DNA from: a virus
IMG/VR virus record: IMGVR_UViG_3300036768_000079
Location: 1-37,401 of that record
Direction: 5' to 3' (one strand)
Length of the DNA stretch: 37,401 nt
Positions 5,793 to 19,532 of the stretch are shown here, one piece after another. The notes below the pieces were generated by a model, which was given only the letters and a program-made list of their open reading frames with translations, was not told where the DNA came from and did not search any database. The stretch's first letter is position 1; the number at the start of each line of letters is the position of its first letter. A program made the translations under genes and the position numbers.

Positions 5793-6260
5793 TTAAGAAA
5801 TCCTAAGAAGTGCATTATTCAAATCATTGGTTGGCATTGTAAGTGTGAATGTTCCACCAGTAACAGTAGTAGCACCAAAAGTATTCACTGATACAGCATT
5901 CTTACCAGACGCTGTGTTGTTATAAATCAGAACACAATCAAATGGCGTGCTGAGTGTCACTGTGCCAAATGCAAGTGAAGCAGACGGTGTCCAAAATGCT
6001 ACAACACCTGTACCACCAGCATTGGATGGGGCATTACCGTTTGTAACAGTAATTCCTCCTGCTGTATATCCGGTACCTGACACTTCACCAGTTGCAGTGT
6101 ATGCAGTCGTTGATTCATTGATTGTTGCTGTTGTAAGGTACAGAGCAGCTTTGAAAGTATCTGGTGATGTGCTTCCACGTACTACTGTTGTTCCGAAAGC
6201 ATGGATTCCATTCAGGAGATCAACACGGAAAGTTTTTGGGATAGCTTGTGTATTAGCCAT
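5793..6260 (-). CDS. Virion structural protein
   Basis: 155 residues, Thr/Gly/Ala-rich and beta-type: ALYLTTATINESTTAYTATG, then GEVSGTGYTAGG and a hydrophobic close TMPTNDLNNALLRI. The pattern resembles small phage proteins found next to portal genes and thought to be structural. The start overlaps the stop of the preceding 68-residue gene. No motif allows a more exact call. Confidence 0.55.
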   Translation of the reverse strand: MANTQAIPKTFRVDLLNGIHAFGTTVVRGSTSPDTFKAALYLTTATINESTTAYTATGEVSGTGYTAGGITVTNGNAPSNAGGTGVVAFWTPSASLAFGTVTLSTPFDCVLIYNNTASGKNAVSVNTFGATTVTGGTFTLTMPTNDLNNALLRIS

Positions 6261-12296: not shown

Positions 12297-12341
12297 TAAG
12301 CAGTTTAACAATCAATGAAATATAAACGAGGGATAAATAAA

Positions 12342-13124
12342 ATGGAAAACTTAACAGAAAATAGAATGCAAAAATATTTAGTCGAAGCCGTAAGCAGGCC
12401 TGGCGTTTTGTCAACGGCTTACTCTGCATTTAATAACTACAGTTTAGGGAATCAAATTGCCGCATTTTGCCAGTTAACCGCGCGCGGCTTGCCTATTTCT
12501 CCCATAGCATCCTATAAGGCATGGCAAGAAAAAGGCCGCAATGTTAAAAAAGGCGAAAAGGCACTCTCGCTATGTATGCCTATTGTCGGCAAAAAAACAA
12601 ACAAAGAAACAGGCGAAGAAGAAGTGTATACATTCTTCGCTTGGAAGAATAACTGGTTCTCGCTAGATCAAACCGAAGGCGCCGATTATGTTCATGAAAT
12701 ATCAACCCCTGAATGGGATTCTGATATTGCGTTACAAGCACTAAATATCACACAAGGCAGTTTTAATCATATAGACGGAAACTGCCAAGGATACGCTAGC
12801 GGCCGTTCGATTGCCATAAACCCATTAGCAGAATTTCCGCATAAAACACGGTTTCACGAAATAGCGCATGTAGTTTTAGGCCATTGCGAGGAAGTTACTA
12901 TGTCTGATAGCGACAAAACGCCTAAAGACATTAAAGAAGTCGAAGCCGAAAGCGTAGCCTATATTTTATGCTCACTCTTAGGATTGCCGGGCCTTGAAGA
13001 ATCGCGCGGTTATATTCAGTCTTGGCTTGTCGGTAATACTATCAACGAGAAAAGCGCCCAAAAAATATTTGCCGCCGCTGATAAGATTCTCAAAGCAGGA
13101 AAACGGCAAGAGGTGACAGCATGA
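12342..13124 (+). CDS. ardC: ArdC-like anti-restriction protein (ssDNA-binding domain plus metalloprotease-like domain)
   Basis: 260 residues from the ATG at 12342, which follows GAGGGATAAATAAA; an upstream in-frame ATG at 12315 lacks a site. The N-terminal 110 residues match the ArdC/primase-TraC-like ssDNA-binding fold (YSLGNQ within the first 40 residues, then KGEKALSLCMPI). The C-terminal half has the zinc-protease motif HEIAHVVLGH (about residue 172) and a downstream EVEAESVAYIL supplying the third ligand. ArdC proteins protect incoming DNA against restriction. An early position fits that use. The stop overlaps the next tiny ORF (ATGA). Confidence 0.78.
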   Translation: MENLTENRMQKYLVEAVSRPGVLSTAYSAFNNYSLGNQIAAFCQLTARGLPISPIASYKAWQEKGRNVKKGEKALSLCMPIVGKKTNKETGEEEVYTFFAWKNNWFSLDQTEGADYVHEISTPEWDSDIALQALNITQGSFNHIDGNCQGYASGRSIAINPLAEFPHKTRFHEIAHVVLGHCEEVTMSDSDKTPKDIKEVEAESVAYILCSLLGLPGLEESRGYIQSWLVGNTINEKSAQKIFAAADKILKAGKRQEVTA

Positions 13125-14157: not shown

Positions 14158-14349
14158 CCTATGGGCTTCGCAAGCCTCCTGAGCGGTTTTTGCATCAGGA
14201 TATATACCAATAGTCATCCTGTTAGTTTGCGGCCCGTATAGGGCCATATAACGGCTTCTTGGATACTTAATTATTAAGTACGGTTCACAACGCATTGTTA
14301 TCTTGCCGGTTCGCTTAAATTCTAGCGGTTTAGAATTTATCATTTCCAT
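14134..14349 (-). CDS. Small protein at end of primase operon
   Basis: 71 residues (MEMINSKPLEFKRTGKITMR at the start). The start overlaps the primase stop, indicating coupled translation. The middle (PYLIIKYPRSRYMALYG, then GIYPDAKTAQEACEAHRKK) looks like a small alpha/beta domain resembling short phage DNA-associated proteins, but I do not recognise a family. The C-terminus overlaps the opposing terminator. Confidence 0.6.
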   Translation of the reverse strand: MEMINSKPLEFKRTGKITMRCEPYLIIKYPRSRYMALYGPQTNRMTIGIYPDAKTAQEACEAHRKKNTANG

Positions 14350-16894
14350 ATTTCCACTCCACTACTCCAAGTTTCACAATATCAATCCCAAGAAAATACC
14401 GAGTTGTCGATGTTTTATATCGCTGAAATCCGCGCGCTTCCATCCGCTGACTAAAACGTTTTTGAGACACTACGCCCTCGCCGGCTTTTTCTACGTATGA
14501 CTTATAAGAATTATATGCTTCACTAGCACCGACTTTTAATGATGGGCTTACGGTGCAGCATTCCTCTATCCAGCGGCCAAGTGTATCTTCATCACCTAAA
14601 TAATCCATTGTTGCCGCTTTAACCGATTCAGGCCGCTGTAAGCCGATTTTTTGCCATTCAAGACATCCCTCTATAGCCCATTGCAAAATACCAGGCCATT
14701 CCTCTTTAAGAAGCTCTGGAAGATTATAAATTCTCTCTGCTTCCGGTATTGATTCAGGAAATTCTACGAAATGCATGCGGCGGAATATTTCCTCGCCGGT
14801 AGACTTGAAAGCTGGTCGGAAATTTCCGTTAACCACTAGCTTAAATTCTGGCCTAAATGTAAATTGTTTTTCATAAAGCCGTCTTGCTGACACAGTATCC
14901 CTGCCGGTAATAAGTTTAAGCATGGATTCATTCCAGCGTGCACCTTCATCCGGTTCCGATGTTCGCACCATTCGTGCACCGGCCAGACTTGCCAATTCTT
15001 CTGTATGCCTTTCTATCCTGCTCTCCATTAGCATTTCTATCTTAGCAGTTGCACAATATCCACCAATGTCTGATTTCCCGAGCATATCTCCCAGGCAATC
15101 TATGAATTTTGATTTTCCAGAATTACCAGCACCGTGAACAAAAAGAAACGCCTCCTCTCTGCAATCACCCGTTAGGATATATCCTGCCCAGCGCTGATAA
15201 TACTTTCGCATTTCTGGATCGCCTCTGGTGCATCGGTCAATAACTTTATCCCAATGCGGCGTTGGCATAGGCTTTGGCGATACGGAAGTCTGTCGAGTAA
15301 TATAATGTTCCCTAACTGGAGTCATCATCTCTCCGGTGCGAAGGTCTATAGTCCCGTCTGGCGTGCCAAGAAGAAACGGATCAGAATCGAAATCTTCTGG
15401 AAGCATTGCTATTGTTGGCAATGTAGATGCACGTTTAAGCACTCTTGCCGACTTATCTACTCCACCAAGACTACGCCTATCCTTATATGATAATTGCCCA
15501 GCTTCACGCCACGCAGCCGCGCTATTCAGATAGTCAGATACGATATTGGTAACTGATCTTTTACGGTCAATAGCCCATCGTGATCCATCCCAGTGCATCC
15601 AGCACTCCCACCCATGGCAGTAAAGCCAATCCTTACCAGCGCTTGCTGCCCATACTTTTGCTAGGTGGTCATCGCTAAATTCGATCAATTCTGGCGATAT
15701 TGATTCAGTTATTCTTGTATGCCTTTTCGGTTTTTTATTATTAACCGCTGGAACATCTACTGTCTGTTGCGGAACGATATTTATAACCGCAGGTATATTC
15801 GGTTCAGGTTCTAGTGGCGGTAGTTCATAGATTGAAGAATCTTCATTGAAATTACGCACGTTATTAGCCTCTGAATTTCTGCTTGGTTGCTCTAATAACA
15901 TTGTTTTTTTTTGAGCATCATCACTTTGTTTTTCAATCTCTCTGCTTGTCAGTGATGTGATTCTTGGTTTCGCCCATTCCTGCAATTGCGCTGTTGTCCA
16001 TCCAGCCTCAAGTGCATCTGCCAAGTCCCATTTATCCGGTTGGTCAGACGTATCTATAATTCTCACCTTGCACCCGATGGCAAGTAAAAATCCTGCAACT
16101 CCAAGCATTGCATCATGTCCAACGCCTGATTTATCTGCATCCGGTATTAGCAGGACATCGCGGTTTGCAAGTGGCGACCAATCGACGGCTTTAATCCCAT
16201 TTGCCCCGCCAGGCCAGGCAATACAAACCATTGCTGGAAGTAATTTTCTCGCTGCATCAGCGGCTTTCTCTCCTTCGCATATAGCCACTTTCGCATCTGG
16301 TCTTGCTGATAGTAAATCAAGCCCATACAGTGGCCGCTTTCCTGCTGTCCATGTTTTAGGTTTCCATTCAGCTTTGGCATTCTCTGAGTATGAGCCGAAT
16401 GTATAGGGGCGATAGGATTTTCCACCATCAGGCTTTTCATATCGTGCAACATATCCCAAGCATCGGCCTTGCTCATCGTTGTATCTCCATATTGCAACAG
16501 GCTTGCCGTAATCCTTTGAGGTCATGTCAGGCATTTCCTCTGGTGCCACTTGGTGAATCCACTCGTTCATTGCTGGGTTGATAGGTTCTGCTGCTGTCAT
16601 TTTCTTTCCCCCGTGAAATCCATTGGCTTTTAGTCGATTGATTGCTGCTGATTCATCGCATCTTTCAAGCACCATGATGGCATCTATTACTGTACCGCCA
16701 GCACCGCAGCTTTTGCAGTGCCAGCGCATTATGCCGTCGCTCTTGCTTTCATATACCTGCATGGATGGATTCTTTTCAGTATGCGCGATGCATAACCCAT
16801 CCCACTCCGCGCCGCGTTTTTTTAGCGCGACACCATAGCTTTCTAGCAATACTACAAGATTAGTATTGCGCTTTAGTTCGTCTAGGTCGTTCAT
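14330..16894 (-). CDS. Primase-helicase (CHC2 zinc, Toprim, D5-type SF3 helicase)
   Basis: 854 residues, a full-length phage/plasmid replicative fusion. The zinc-binding primase motif uses Cys35, His38, Cys60 and Cys63. The Toprim domain shows CEGEKAAD (about 207) and IPDADKSG (about 249). A linker rich in Pro and Asn follows, then the D5/P4-type region (LLGTPDGTIDLRTGE) and an SF3 helicase with Walker A GAGNSGKS (about 585) and the downstream LVVNGNFRPAF sensor region. The C-terminus may hold a winged helix. It should lay primers and unwind DNA for the host polymerase. Second gene of a leftward operon behind the HTH gene. Confidence 0.9.
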   Translation of the reverse strand: MNDLDELKRNTNLVVLLESYGVALKKRGAEWDGLCIAHTEKNPSMQVYESKSDGIMRWHCKSCGAGGTVIDAIMVLERCDESAAINRLKANGFHGGKKMTAAEPINPAMNEWIHQVAPEEMPDMTSKDYGKPVAIWRYNDEQGRCLGYVARYEKPDGGKSYRPYTFGSYSENAKAEWKPKTWTAGKRPLYGLDLLSARPDAKVAICEGEKAADAARKLLPAMVCIAWPGGANGIKAVDWSPLANRDVLLIPDADKSGVGHDAMLGVAGFLLAIGCKVRIIDTSDQPDKWDLADALEAGWTTAQLQEWAKPRITSLTSREIEKQSDDAQKKTMLLEQPSRNSEANNVRNFNEDSSIYELPPLEPEPNIPAVINIVPQQTVDVPAVNNKKPKRHTRITESISPELIEFSDDHLAKVWAASAGKDWLYCHGWECWMHWDGSRWAIDRKRSVTNIVSDYLNSAAAWREAGQLSYKDRRSLGGVDKSARVLKRASTLPTIAMLPEDFDSDPFLLGTPDGTIDLRTGEMMTPVREHYITRQTSVSPKPMPTPHWDKVIDRCTRGDPEMRKYYQRWAGYILTGDCREEAFLFVHGAGNSGKSKFIDCLGDMLGKSDIGGYCATAKIEMLMESRIERHTEELASLAGARMVRTSEPDEGARWNESMLKLITGRDTVSARRLYEKQFTFRPEFKLVVNGNFRPAFKSTGEEIFRRMHFVEFPESIPEAERIYNLPELLKEEWPGILQWAIEGCLEWQKIGLQRPESVKAATMDYLGDEDTLGRWIEECCTVSPSLKVGASEAYNSYKSYVEKAGEGVVSQKRFSQRMEARGFQRYKTSTTRYFLGIDIVKLGVVEWKYGNDKF

Positions 16895-16903
16895 TTCGAT
16901 GAC

Positions 16904-17152
16904 CTATCTTTTCGCATTTGATAGCTTCTCTTTCGATAGCTTCTCTTTCGATAGCTTCGCCTTCGATGGCTTCGCTTTTAGTGGCTTCGCTACAAGTTTT
17001 CCATTAGTCACCGCTTCAATAATTCGCTGCGCCTTATATGGTATTGCACCCTTGTTTTCCCAATGTCTTATAGCTGGTTCCGTATAACCAATGGCCAGCG
17101 CGATAGCTAATCGGTTTCCATCATAATAATCAAGTAGTTGTTTAAGTGTCAT
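16904..17152 (-). CDS. Cro/YdaS-like HTH regulator with lysine-repeat tail
   Basis: 82 residues. Residues 1-50 match short Cro-like repressors (NRLAIALAIGYTEPAIRHWE, then NKGAIPYKAQRI). The C-terminal 27 residues are five-residue repeats rich in Lys (KAKLSKEKLSKEKLS), giving a strongly basic tail that could strengthen DNA binding. AAAGGAGAAAGTT precedes the ATG. First gene of the leftward primase operon, facing the rightward promoter at 17225, so control of that divergent region is likely. Confidence 0.7.
   Translation of the reverse strand: MTLKQLLDYYDGNRLAIALAIGYTEPAIRHWENKGAIPYKAQRIIEAVTNGKLVAKPLKAKPSKAKLSKEKLSKEKLSNAKR
16920..16994 (-). repeat. 15-bp tandem repeats encoding the lysine-rich tail
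   Basis: Units of the form GATAGCTTCTCTTTC begin at 16920, 16935, 16950, 16965 and 16980, the last two diverged. They keep the reading frame and extend the protein by five residues per copy, so copy number may vary between isolates. Confidence 0.75.
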
Positions 17153-17224: not shown

Positions 17225-17252
17225 TTGACAAAGGAAAAAAAATATGGATAAT
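17225..17252 (+). promoter_or_regulatory. Second rightward early promoter
   Basis: TTGACA (17225-17230), 16-bp purine-rich spacer, GATAAT (17247-17252) within TATGGATAAT. The spacer AAGGAAAAAAAATATGG resembles that of the promoter at 11363. It would transcribe the 60-residue gene, the 36-bp array and the recombination genes. A stray CGAGTC lies just downstream, at 17254. Confidence 0.7.
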
Positions 17253-17287
17253 TCGAGTCCCCAATAACCAAAGTGAGGATAAATTAT

Positions 17288-17470
17288 ATGAAAACGCGAA
17301 TGTATAAGGTAACAGAAAAAGCAACGGGCAATGTGAGACTTGTCGATGCATTCAATGCAGACAAGGCTATTGGATTCGTTGCAAGTGACAAATACGAGTG
17401 CAAGGTAGCCAAAGCTGCTGATATTGCCCAGCTTGTTGGCAGTGGTGTTAAGGTAGAGCAGGCAAGGTAA
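17288..17470 (+). CDS. Small conserved-type phage protein
   Basis: 60 residues from the ATG at 17288 (MKTRMYKVTEKATGNVRLVD), with GTGAGGATAAATTAT before it. A GTG 15 bases upstream is less likely because it overlaps that site. The pattern (ATGxVRLVDAxNxxxA ... VASDKYECKVA ... LVGSGVKVEQA) resembles small phage proteins of unknown role found in early operons. It is the first gene from the 17225 promoter and ends just before the repeat array. Confidence 0.65.
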   Translation: MKTRMYKVTEKATGNVRLVDAFNADKAIGFVASDKYECKVAKAADIAQLVGSGVKVEQAR

Positions 17471-17476
17471 ATGATT

Positions 17477-17872
17477 TTAGCCAAAAGAACAGAGAGAAAC
17501 ACATGCGTTTAGCGAGTCACTAGGGCTGAGAGAACCACTAATGCGGAACGAGTCATGGCGCAGGAGAGTACCATTCCGGTAGATCGAGTCATTGCAGAGG
17601 AGATAACCAGAACTGAGGAGCGAGCCGAAATGACAGAGAGTACCAGGGGCGTAAGCGAGTCAAGCGGGCATAGAGCACCATTTCGTGCGAGCGAGTCACA
17701 TGTAGGGATAGCACCAAGGGGAATGAACGAGTCATGGTGTGGGAGAGTACCAGTGTCAGGGAACGAGTCACTAAGAAATAGAGCACCAGTTGAGATGAAC
17801 GAGTCACGAGGATGGAGAGTACCAGATTAGGTTAGCGAGTCACGATGAATGAGAGAACCAAGTCCGGCGAGC
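17477..17872 (+). repeat. 36-bp two-block repeat array with variable segments (10 units plus 1 decayed)
   Basis: Units start at 17513, 17549, 17585, 17621, 17656, 17692, 17728, 17764, 17800 and 17836. Each is CGAGTCAY, 7 variable bases, GAGAGTACCA (variants with A or C for the T, or TAGAGCACCA), then 11 variable bases; unit 4 is one base shorter. A decayed unit (17477-17512) keeps GAGAGAAACA in register. No two variable segments are alike. The blocks are conserved at all codon positions and the 35-bp unit shifts frame, so conservation is at DNA or RNA level. It lies 5' of the IS110-like gene and downstream of the 17225 promoter, so it is probably transcribed. It lacks the long repeats of CRISPR. 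Confidence 0.85.
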
Positions 17873-17905
17873 GTTATATCAATTAACCAACGAAAGGAAC
17901 ATTAA

Positions 17906-18718
17906 ATGGAACTGAACACAATCGAAAGAATCGGTAGGGACATCATTAAATCTGCTGAGACACTATCTGATGATGAGGCAAGATACCTAGTCGACGCCTA
18001 CTATATTATGCAGGATGACCGGAAGCGGGCATATAACCAATGCCGCGCGGTTGAGCAAAAAGCAGATGAATCACATTCTGCCAGCGATAACAAAATTATC
18101 CAGTGGCTTGCTGCACAATCTGAGATTCTTGAGAATCAAATCAAGCGTGCGCTGGACAAATATACTGAATCTCACCCGATGGGGTCATGGATGCGAAAAA
18201 TTGTTGGCATTGGCCCTGTTATATCTGCTGGACTTCTTGCCCATATTGATATTGAGAAAGCGCCTACAGTTGGGCATATATGGCGGTATGCTGGCCTTGA
18301 TCCTACAGTTAAATGGGAAAAGGGACAAAGGCGCCCGTGGAATGCTACTCTGAAAACATTGTGCTGGAAGGCTGGTCAATCGTTTATGAAATTTTCAGGT
18401 AGGTATGATTGCTACTACGGACAGGTATATCGCAAGCGTAAAGAATTCGAGATCGAGCGCAATGACCGTGGCGATAACAAGGAAGTAGCATCGGAGATTA
18501 TCAAGAAAGTTGGCAAAACGACAGAAGCCTATAAGCATTTGATGGAAGGGAAACTTCCGCCAGGCCAAATAGATGCACGTGCCCGCAGGTACGCCGTAAA
18601 GCTGTTTTTATCTCACATGCATGGTGAATGGTATTTCCGCCACTTCGGAGTCGAAGCGCCGCTTCCCTATCCGATTGCACTTCTTGGGCACGCTCACTTC
18701 ATTGATAGACCTAGATAA
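17906..18718 (+). CDS. IS110-type transposase C-terminal-domain protein lacking the RuvC-like domain
   Basis: 270 residues, with AAAGGAACATTAA before the ATG. Residues 1-95 are helical and probably coiled coil. Residues about 98-170 match the Transposase_20 (IS116/IS110/IS902) domain: VGIGPVISAGLLAHID (helix-hairpin-helix) and IWRYAGLDP (AGL at 129-131). Full IS110 recombinases have an N-terminal DEDD RuvC-like domain, coiled coil, then this domain with a catalytic serine. Here the DEDD part is absent and no serine occurs between residues 129 and 158, where it is expected. The remainder is basic (YRKRKEFEIERNDRG). No IS ends are visible. A domesticated nucleic-acid-binding protein is likely, possibly serving the adjacent array. 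Confidence 0.75.
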   Translation: MELNTIERIGRDIIKSAETLSDDEARYLVDAYYIMQDDRKRAYNQCRAVEQKADESHSASDNKIIQWLAAQSEILENQIKRALDKYTESHPMGSWMRKIVGIGPVISAGLLAHIDIEKAPTVGHIWRYAGLDPTVKWEKGQRRPWNATLKTLCWKAGQSFMKFSGRYDCYYGQVYRKRKEFEIERNDRGDNKEVASEIIKKVGKTTEAYKHLMEGKLPPGQIDARARRYAVKLFLSHMHGEWYFRHFGVEAPLPYPIALLGHAHFIDRPR

Positions 18719-18752: not shown

Positions 18753-19532
18753 ATGAACATATTACGTATTAAAGCCGACGAGTATCACGCAATTGAAGCT
18801 GTATCTAATTCTTTGATTAGTAAGATACTCAAATCACCAGCACATGCCCGTGCCTATCTTGATAAACAGCCAGTGGCGACTAAGGCAATGGAATTCGGGA
18901 CTGCATTTCATGTAGCTATTCTTGAGCCAAAGAAATTCGCAGAGCAATATGTAGTATTCAACGGAGATAGGAGGACTAAGGAAGGGAAGGCCACTTATGA
19001 GGAATTAACATGTTCAGGAAAACAAATTCTTTCAACAGAAGATATGGAAGATATACATGGTATGCAGTTATCTGTATTCTCGCACAATGCAGCTAAGAAA
19101 TTGATAGAAGAAGGACATGCCGAGTTATCGGTAACGTGGGATGATTACGACACTATGGTGAAGTGCAAGTGCCGTCCAGACTGGTGGAATGGTGACGTTT
19201 TGGTCGATATTAAAACCACTGATGACGCATCGCCGGAAGGCTTCATGCGCGCGATTGTGAAGTATGGCTATCACAGGCAAGCAGCATGGTATTTACGAGG
19301 AACGGAAGCAAAGAAATTTATATTTATTGCTGTAGAGAAACAAGATCCATACGCTGTTGGCGTGTATGAACTTGACGCGCTATCGCTATCACAAGGCAGT
19401 TACGAATGCGATAGAGCTTTGCAGATATGGGCAAATGCAAATGCTACTGGAGAGTTTCGAGCCTATTCAGATGAATGTGAGTTGCTTTCCTTACCCGACT
19501 GGAAATTTGATGAACAGGAGATTACTGTATGA
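18753..19532 (+). CDS. RecE-like PD-(D/E)XK exonuclease
   Basis: 259 residues with AAAGGAGACAATACG before the ATG. The N-terminal region (YHAIEAVSNSLISKILKSPA, then FGTAFHVAILEP) and the nuclease core (CRPDWWNGDVLVDIKTT, about 139-156, then YHRQAAWYLRG) match phage exonuclease VIII / DUF3799-type proteins. These degrade one strand from double-stranded ends to start recombination. Catalytic Asp and Lys (DIKT) are present. Its stop overlaps the start of the next gene (ATGA), the usual place for an annealing partner. Confidence 0.82.
   Translation: MNILRIKADEYHAIEAVSNSLISKILKSPAHARAYLDKQPVATKAMEFGTAFHVAILEPKKFAEQYVVFNGDRRTKEGKATYEELTCSGKQILSTEDMEDIHGMQLSVFSHNAAKKLIEEGHAELSVTWDDYDTMVKCKCRPDWWNGDVLVDIKTTDDASPEGFMRAIVKYGYHRQAAWYLRGTEAKKFIFIAVEKQDPYAVGVYELDALSLSQGSYECDRALQIWANANATGEFRAYSDECELLSLPDWKFDEQEITV

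What the first reader, a model, noticed from the sequence alone, without database searches (positions are those of the whole stretch)
17906..18718. Stripped-down IS110 recombinase: coiled coil plus Tnp domain, no RuvC-like domain, no expected catalytic serine
Seen: the GIGPVISAGLL and AGLDP signatures at residues 98-131, a helical 95-residue N-terminus, and no serine between residues 129 and 158. No inverted repeats or IS boundaries flank it and it sits in a phage operon. Established: IS110 enzymes need a DEDD domain and a catalytic serine. Inference: it is domesticated for nucleic-acid binding rather than transposition, perhaps recombination, exclusion or guide binding.
Basis: partly seen in the sequence, partly recalled or inferred. 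Interest (0 to 1): 0.78.

Follow-up and report, generated by a model that had tools for sequence, protein, structure and literature searches.

The report
Phage RNA-guided TIGR-TasA locus
The "stripped-down transposase" is TasA, the RNA-holding protein of a phage-borne TIGR system; an overlooked array of 11 guide units lies just upstream of it, and guides of its relatives precisely match the DNA-replication genes of a different phage family, which suggests such phages use short RNAs to interfere with rivals.

Summary
The ORF is real, with no RuvC/DEDD domain and no serine at 129-158. It is not a domesticated IS110: it is TasA of a TIGR-Tas system (Faure 2025, PMC12045711). TasH/TasR are its nearest solved relatives (E ~1e-13, Z 17-19); IS621 is distant (E 0.03, Z 12.7). 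Only one other window gene occurs in the TasA-bearing records, so the cassette moves on its own. Going further, I searched for natural targets, an open question in that paper. Nine distinct guides from relatives match one other phage family at 0-1 mismatch, essentially only in the predicted geometry (spacer B + reverse complement of spacer A, no gap; null mean 0.5, max 3), clustered at the start of its Sak4/SSB/exonuclease/helicase/primase operon. Some guides are swapped versions of one another, implying dsDNA targets. Most likely TasA is an RNA-guided, non-cutting block against rival phages. The window's own targets were not found, and a second guide scan gave no coherent target.

The parts
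17225..17252 (+). sigma70-like promoter TTGACA-16-GATAAT (11/12 matches), probable early rightward promoter for ORF 17273, the array and tasA; diverges from the Cro-like gene 16904-17152(-)
   Evidence: pattern counts in the region are not above shuffles, so suggestive only
17273..17470 (+). small ORF (65 aa, GTG start) between promoter and array; function unknown
17479..17873 (+). TIGR array, 11 units (10 of 36 nt, one of 35): edge GARCGAGYCA / spacer A 8 nt / loop GAGAGNACCA / spacer B 8 nt; begins with a 5'-truncated edge (AGCCA) and ends with a 3'-truncated edge (GAGCG)
   Evidence: at most 3 units in 200 shuffles; 0 on the opposite strand of the loci
17479..17514 (+). predicted tigRNA 1: A=AAAGAACA, B=CATGCGTT (loop GAGAGAAACA, degenerate)
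17515..17550 (+). predicted tigRNA 2: A=CTAGGGCT, B=CTAATGCG; predicted target CTAATGCGAGCCCTAG
17551..17586 (+). predicted tigRNA 3: A=TGGCGCAG, B=TTCCGGTA; predicted target TTCCGGTACTGCGCCA
17587..17622 (+). predicted tigRNA 4: A=TTGCAGAG, B=GAACTGAG
17623..17657 (+). predicted tigRNA 5 (35 nt, degenerate edge GAGCGAGCCG): A=AAATGACA, B=GGGGCGT
17658..17693 (+). predicted tigRNA 6: A=AGCGGGCA, B=TTTCGTGC
17694..17729 (+). predicted tigRNA 7: A=CATGTAGG, B=AGGGGAAT
17730..17765 (+). predicted tigRNA 8: A=TGGTGTGG, B=GTGTCAGG
17766..17801 (+). predicted tigRNA 9: A=CTAAGAAA, B=GTTGAGAT
17802..17837 (+). predicted tigRNA 10: A=CGAGGATG, B=GATTAGGT; predicted target GATTAGGTCATCCTCG
17838..17873 (+). 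predicted tigRNA 11: A=CGATGAAT, B=AGTCCGGC; predicted target AGTCCGGCATTCATCG
17906..18718 (+). tasA: solo Nop-domain protein, 270 aa (PF02371 fragment; phrog_4285)
17969..18172 (+). long helical hairpin (residues 22-89), within the part that aligns with TasH/TasR where TasR has its coiled-coil dimerisation region
   Evidence: coiled-coil role from PMC12045711
18194..18313 (+). Transposase_20/Nop signature GIGPVISAGLL...AGLDP (residues 97-136); no serine from 129 to 158
18753..19532 (+). DUF3799 PDDEXK, RecE/exonuclease VIII-like; next gene in the operon (neighbour, not part of TIGR-Tas)

Best explanation
17479-18718 is a complete TIGR-TasA system in a tailed phage. The array is transcribed, probably from the early promoter at 17225, and cut within the edge repeats into 36-nt tigRNAs, each with two 8-nt spacers. 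A TasA dimer binds one tigRNA through the Nop domains. Spacer B and spacer A pair with opposite strands of a contiguous 16-bp target reading 5'-B-rc(A)-3'. TasA has no nuclease domain, so the complex probably stays on the DNA and bends it, acting as an RNA-guided roadblock. In this TasA family at least one natural target is the start of the early recombination/replication operon of a different, integrase-bearing phage family, so the most likely role is interference between phages (CRISPRi-like). Shown here: the array, family membership, target geometry and target locus for relatives. Shown by others for relatives: 36-nt processing, dual-strand pairing, dimer structure. Inferred: expression, DNA binding and the blocking effect in this phage.
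For: Array of 11 units next to tasA; arrays beside all 28 viral homologs and L030 by the same parser, and beside L031 with a different loop. Nearly the same edge repeat, repeat length and 8-nt spacers as the published, biochemically tested Salicola phage CGphi29 array (AAGCGAGCCA / AAGACAACCA). PDB: TasH 2.6e-13, TasR 6e-13; folds TasH Z 18.9, TasR Z 17.2, IS110 enzymes Z 12.5-13. Published processing, targeting and structure (PMC12045711). Targets: excluding the scanning guide, 9 distinct guides hit 14 contigs of one phage family at <=1 mismatch as B+rc(A) with no gap (null mean 0.5, max 3 of 40 shuffles; every other geometry 0-1, one of them 3), including two further exact 16/16 matches. Swapped A/B guides, 8 comparisons against 0-1 by chance, fit a symmetric dsDNA target. 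The targeted genes have no homolog in the TasA records and open an operon with Sak4, SSB, Cas4-type exonuclease, helicase and primase.
Against: No RNA or binding data exist for this locus. Four of the window's 11 guides have exact 16-mers in IMG/VR, but only at counts compatible with chance, and no contig is convincingly hit by two window guides. A second conserved guide of relatives gave no coherent target. The target evidence rests on one phage family, and its 14 contigs are close relatives, so it is one locus and not 14 independent ones. The roadblock effect is inferred from the missing nuclease and the operon-start location. Other uses (help to integrase, partition with the ParB-like neighbour in relatives, regulation of host genes) are not excluded.
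Confidence: 0.65

Rival explanations
1. TIGR-TasA as above, but the targets are host or self DNA: TasA-tigRNAs bend or mark DNA to help phage integration, recombination, partition or gene control rather than to fight other phages.
For: tasA sits in the phage recombination/replication region: next to an exonuclease VIII-like gene here, SSAP and Gam-like in L030, Erf/exonuclease in the L010 group, Sak4 and polymerase in L022, helicases in L025/L027/L028. A ParB-like gene follows the array in L001, L002 and L004-L011, and ParB association is in PMC12045711.
Against: No exact target of any array in the TasA-bearing records, own record included, in the B-rc(A) geometry. The one target locus found is in phages whose targeted genes have no homolog in the TasA records. 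No ParB-like gene was recognised near tasA in the window.
Confidence: 0.22
2. A domesticated or degenerate IS110 recombinase that lost its DEDD domain.
For: PF02371 match at residues 97-136 and shared fold with IS621/ISCro4 at Z about 13.
Against: Clearly closer to Tas proteins than to IS110; TIGR arrays next to every relative examined; conserved in unrelated phages with some 80 invariant positions, not decayed; no IS ends.
Confidence: 0.03
3. The repeats at 17479-17873 are unrelated to the gene (replication origin iterons or a repetitive small protein, ORF 17555-17830), and the gene is an orphan.
For: Iteron-like repeats near phage replication genes are common (general knowledge); part of the array is an open frame.
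Against: The frame is broken by stops and a 35-nt unit; the repeats track tasA in unrelated phages, upstream or downstream, always on the same strand; spacers vary while repeats are constant; spacer pairs of relatives match targets in one geometry.
Confidence: 0.02

Closest known systems
TIGR-Tas, TasA type with dual-repeat array (Faure et al. 2025, PMC12045711)
   Same: Solo Nop protein without nuclease; alternating edge and loop repeats with two short spacers, 36-nt period; truncated edge at both array ends; array next to the gene; phage-borne.
   Different: Array lies in front of tasA with no separate terminator seen; spacers 8 nt (as SpTIGR) rather than 9 nt; no ParB-like neighbour, unlike the sister group.
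SpTIGR / TasH of Salicola phage CGphi29 (PDB 21kl, 9vzx, 9w04)
   Same: Edge repeat AAGCGAGCCA against GARCGAGYCA, 10-nt repeats, 8-nt spacers; fold Z 18.9 over 230 residues.
   Different: TasH carries an N-terminal HNH nuclease; the window protein has only about 17 residues before the aligned part.
IS110 bridge-RNA recombinases (IS621 PDB 8wt6, ISCro4 PDB 9t56)
   Same: Shared coiled-coil/Nop-type fold at Z about 13; GIG...AGL signature.
   Different: No DEDD domain, no catalytic serine, no bridge RNA, no element ends; sequence match marginal.
Box C/D snoRNP protein Nop5
   Same: Same Nop domain class and dual-guide logic according to PMC12045711.
   Different: No relation tested directly here; no K-turn RNA, fibrillarin or L7 partner; targets RNA rather than DNA.
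Type IV and V-M CRISPR systems
   Same: Works like: array-encoded guides on mobile elements that interfere without cutting (comparison made in PMC12045711).
   Different: Unrelated effector, two short split spacers on opposite strands, no PAM, no adaptation genes.

Membership tests
TIGR-Tas (TasA) | Nop-domain protein of the Tas family | tested here: met
   TasH E 2.6e-13, TasR E 6e-13; profile 7e-16 to TasR; Z 17-19
TIGR-Tas (TasA) | Adjacent array of alternating edge and loop repeats (8-12 nt) with short (8-12 nt) spacers | tested here: met
   11 units at 17479-17873; at most 3 in 200 shuffles
TIGR-Tas (TasA) | Array starts and ends with truncated edge repeats | tested here: met
   AGCCA at 17479 and GAGCG at 17869-17873
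TIGR-Tas (TasA) | No nuclease domain (distinguishes TasA from TasH and TasR) | tested here: met
   Pfam only PF02371 above cutoff; residues 18-270 align with TasH 64-304 and leave no room for HNH or RuvC
TIGR-Tas (TasA) | Rho-independent terminator after the array (typical, not defining) | tested here: not met
   None found between array and tasA on the + strand; expected to be absent when the array precedes tasA in one transcript
TIGR-Tas (TasA) | Processing into 36-nt tigRNAs bound by TasA | not testable with these tools
   needs RNA sequencing
TIGR-Tas (TasA) | Tandem targeting of opposite strands by spacers A and B | tested here: inconclusive
   Supported for guides of relatives; not shown for the window's own guides
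IS110 recombinase | N-terminal DEDD/RuvC-like domain | tested here: not met
   No PF01548 match; about 18 residues where IS621 has 124
IS110 recombinase | Catalytic serine after the AGLTP-type motif | tested here: not met
   No S at residues 129-158; in the profile alignment the IS621 Ser241 position (known from memory) falls near V135/K136; S135 in some relatives is not conserved
IS110 recombinase | Element ends and bridge RNA in the flanks | tested here: not met
   No relevant inverted repeats, no Rfam match; the flanking array is TIGR-type

The most novel reading that the evidence does not exclude
Phages of this TasA family carry TIGR arrays as a guide library against rival phages: independent arrays converge on the same sites, in both orientations, at the start of a rival temperate phage's early recombination/replication operon, and TasA silences that operon without cutting. 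This would be the first natural target and biological role for TIGR systems known to me, and would mean guides are acquired or selected from double-stranded rival DNA.
Probability: 0.55. Interest if true: 0.88.

Novelty: new member of a known kind. Interest (0 to 1): 0.66.

Why it matters
TIGR-Tas was described in 2025 with its natural targets, spacer origin and the role of nuclease-free TasA listed as open. The window adds a clean, compact member with the array in front of tasA. The comparison it prompted gives a concrete answer candidate: guides of this TasA family match a different phage family's early operon, in the predicted 16-bp geometry, with swapped and variant-matched guides. That makes the open question directly testable with a defined guide-target set.

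Tried and rejected
Rfam: no match. Exact targets of 397 spacer pairs in 0.94 Mb of TasA-bearing records: none in B-rc(A) geometry at gaps 0-3. An apparent excess at gap 2 (18 against 8 at <=1 mismatch) was rejected, because gap 9 gave 17 and the convincing signal later proved to be at gap 0 in other phages. A conserved virion-gene site in G002/G003 (NYTKPG motif) was taken for a target and rejected after the IMG/VR scan. Within that scan gap 2 was not enriched, while its gap-0 hits led to the target family. The contigs fetched by that scan were unusable as a neutral control because one guide selected them. Four window guides and guide TCGAACAA/AAACCATA gave no coherent targets. Iteron, coding-repeat and degenerate-IS110 readings rejected as listed. 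Sister phages of the window by terminase: 11 loci, at most 61% identical. The window's DUF3799 gene was not found in the other TasA records.

Full report
WHAT IS THERE. The ORF at 17906-18718 is as described: 270 aa, GIGPVISAGLL at 101-111, AGLDP at 129-133, no serine at 129-158, only a partial Transposase_20 match (22.6 bits, cutoff 21.3) and no DEDD domain. PHROGs places it nearly full length in phrog_4285, labelled 'transposase' (8e-50), which is probably a misleading label. The AlphaFold2 model (15 sequences, pLDDT 84, pTM 0.80) is all-helical, with a long helical hairpin (residues 22-89) followed by the Nop-type C-terminal part.

THE MISSED PART. Between 17479 and 17873, ending 32 nt before the ATG, lie eleven units of edge repeat GARCGAGYCA, 8-nt variable spacer, loop repeat GAGAGNACCA, 8-nt variable spacer; ten units are 36 nt and one is 35. 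The array opens with a 5'-truncated edge (AGCCA) and closes with a 3'-truncated edge (GAGCG), as reported for TIGR arrays. Shuffles of the region give at most 3 units, and the opposite strand of the loci gives none. The frame is broken by stops and the 35-nt unit, so ORF 17555-17830 is probably spurious. A good promoter-like site (TTGACA-16-GATAAT, 17225-17252) precedes the array, though such sites are not enriched in the region.

IDENTITY. The arrangement matches TIGR-Tas (Faure et al. 2025, PMC12045711, read), in which Nop-domain Tas proteins use 36-nt tigRNAs whose two spacers pair with opposite strands of a DNA target. By sequence the window protein matches TasH (2.6e-13) and TasR (6e-13) but IS621 only at 0.031; a profile of its family gives TasR 7e-16, TasH 4e-11 and IS621 0.001. 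By fold: TasH Z 18.9 over 230 residues, TasR 17.2 over 195, ISCro4 and IS621 about 13. An IS110 transposase from the same Propionivibrio genome that holds the closest relative is not matched. The published Salicola phage CGphi29 array, fetched here, has edge AAGCGAGCCA, loop AAGACAACCA and 8-nt spacers, nearly the window's. With no nuclease domain the protein is TasA.

RELATIVES. 28 viral loci at 46-75% identity and two genomic loci all have arrays: 6-42 units by one parser in 29 of them, and a variant with loop GATGTTCA in the Woesearchaeota MAG L031. The array is usually downstream; upstream in the window, L030 and L023; on both sides in a few. The nearest relative (79%, support 99/99) lies at a contig end in Candidatus Propionivibrio aalborgensis, beside SSAP and Gam-like phage genes. 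Apart from tasA, only one window gene (5793-6260) has a match in the viral TasA records and one (the methylase) a weak one in the Propionivibrio contig, so the tasA-array cassette travels between otherwise unrelated phages. It tends to sit in the recombination/replication region. A sister group has a ParB-like gene after the array, as in the paper; none was recognised near tasA in the window.

ARRAY EVOLUTION. Among sister phages spacer pairs are mostly kept as pairs, with point changes and internal gains and losses rather than growth at one end (119 identical aligned units over 12 array comparisons, 41 with small changes in one spacer, 4 with spacer A replaced). Eight pair comparisons are swapped copies (A of one is B of the other) against 0-1 in shuffles, and none are reverse-complement copies. 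A swapped guide addresses the same double-stranded site read from the other strand, and the paper found swapped tigRNAs functional.

NATURAL TARGETS. Searching TasA-bearing records with 397 spacer pairs gave nothing firm. One IMG/VR scan with a conserved guide (GCCAGGCT/AAGTACAC, all gaps 0-8) brought in a set of related contigs that turned out to be hit by other guides as well. After removing the scanning guide and its variant, nine distinct guides, found in arrays of L001, L004, L006, L008, L009, L011-L020 and L024, match 14 contigs of this family at 0-1 mismatch as B + rc(A) with no gap; shuffled pairs give mean 0.5 and at most 3; every other geometry tried gives 0-1, one of them 3. Two of the nine are exact over 16 bp: TTCTTGAA|GGTTCTTA and TACCACGA|AGGCTTCC in L100. 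Guide variants follow target variants: TGGATTGC/GTTCACAT fits L112 and L122, and TGGATCGC/GTTCGCAT fits L128 and L172. One site is addressed by guides in both orientations and, two bases away, by another guide (L014). The five main sites lie within 0.9 kb (L100 9129-10040), at and just before the first genes after a sigma-factor-like gene, followed by a Sak4-like SSAP, SSB, Cas4-type exonuclease, helicase and primase; another contig of the family has an integrase. The targeted genes have no homolog in the TasA records at E 1e-4. In two cases a TasA contig and a target contig bear the same metagenome number (L016/L107 in 3300032116, L014/L149 in 3300023179).

LIMITS. The target evidence concerns relatives, one target family, and contigs that are close kin of each other. 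The window's own guides were tested at 16 bp for four units; 4, 22, 5 and 15 contigs carry the exact 16-mer, which is compatible with chance, and no contig is convincingly hit by two window guides. Another conserved guide of the relatives gave no coherent target.

MECHANISM. Shown by others for relatives: processing, dual-strand pairing, dimer structure and strong DNA bending (PMC12045711). Shown here: anatomy, membership, and for relatives the target geometry and a non-self target locus. Inferred: because TasA has no nuclease, the complex acts by occupancy, and guides near an operon start suggest a transcription or replication block. Alternatives (help to integration, recombination or partition; host regulation) remain open.

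VERDICT. The window feature is a new member of a known kind, TIGR-TasA. The wider result, candidate natural targets for this TasA family, addresses a question the discovery paper left open and raises the interest of the locus.

Noticed in passing
L100 9129-10040 and 13 related contigs (L090, L093, L107, L112, L113, L119, L122, L128, L131, L138, L149, L169, L172): Start of the Sak4/SSB/exonuclease/helicase/primase operon of an integrase-bearing phage family is matched by at least nine distinct TIGR guides from other phages.
   Followed up: yes
arrays of L004, L006, L008, L012, L002, L016: Swapped spacer pairs (A and B exchanged) in unrelated arrays, 8 comparisons against 0-1 expected.
   Followed up: yes
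L002/L004, L007/L009, L006/L008, L012/L017 arrays: Sister TIGR arrays differ by internal unit gains and losses and point changes rather than by growth at one end as in CRISPR.
   Followed up: partly
L192 2390-3447 (Microcystis phage Mvi-JY20, PP438412.1): A named Microcystis phage carries a Tas-like gene followed by a dual-repeat array (ATGCGAGCC / ACGAAACCC): a possible model system.
   Followed up: partly
L193 2291-3274 (Mycobacterium phage Rich gp50, KY224000.1): Tas-like Nop protein in a mycobacteriophage; no dual-repeat array found in L193 1000-4000 (a stem-loop array was not looked for).
   Followed up: no
L031 4840-5940: Woesearchaeota MAG contig with a TasA at 44% identity and a TIGR array with a different loop repeat (GATGTTCA).
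   Followed up: partly
window 12315-13124: ArdC-like antirestriction protein in the same phage; a D5-type primase/helicase gene at 14330-16894 lies on the opposite strand.
   Followed up: no
window 17555-17830: Open frame inside the array (repeats like NES..R.P) that automatic annotation would call a protein; probably spurious.
   Followed up: yes
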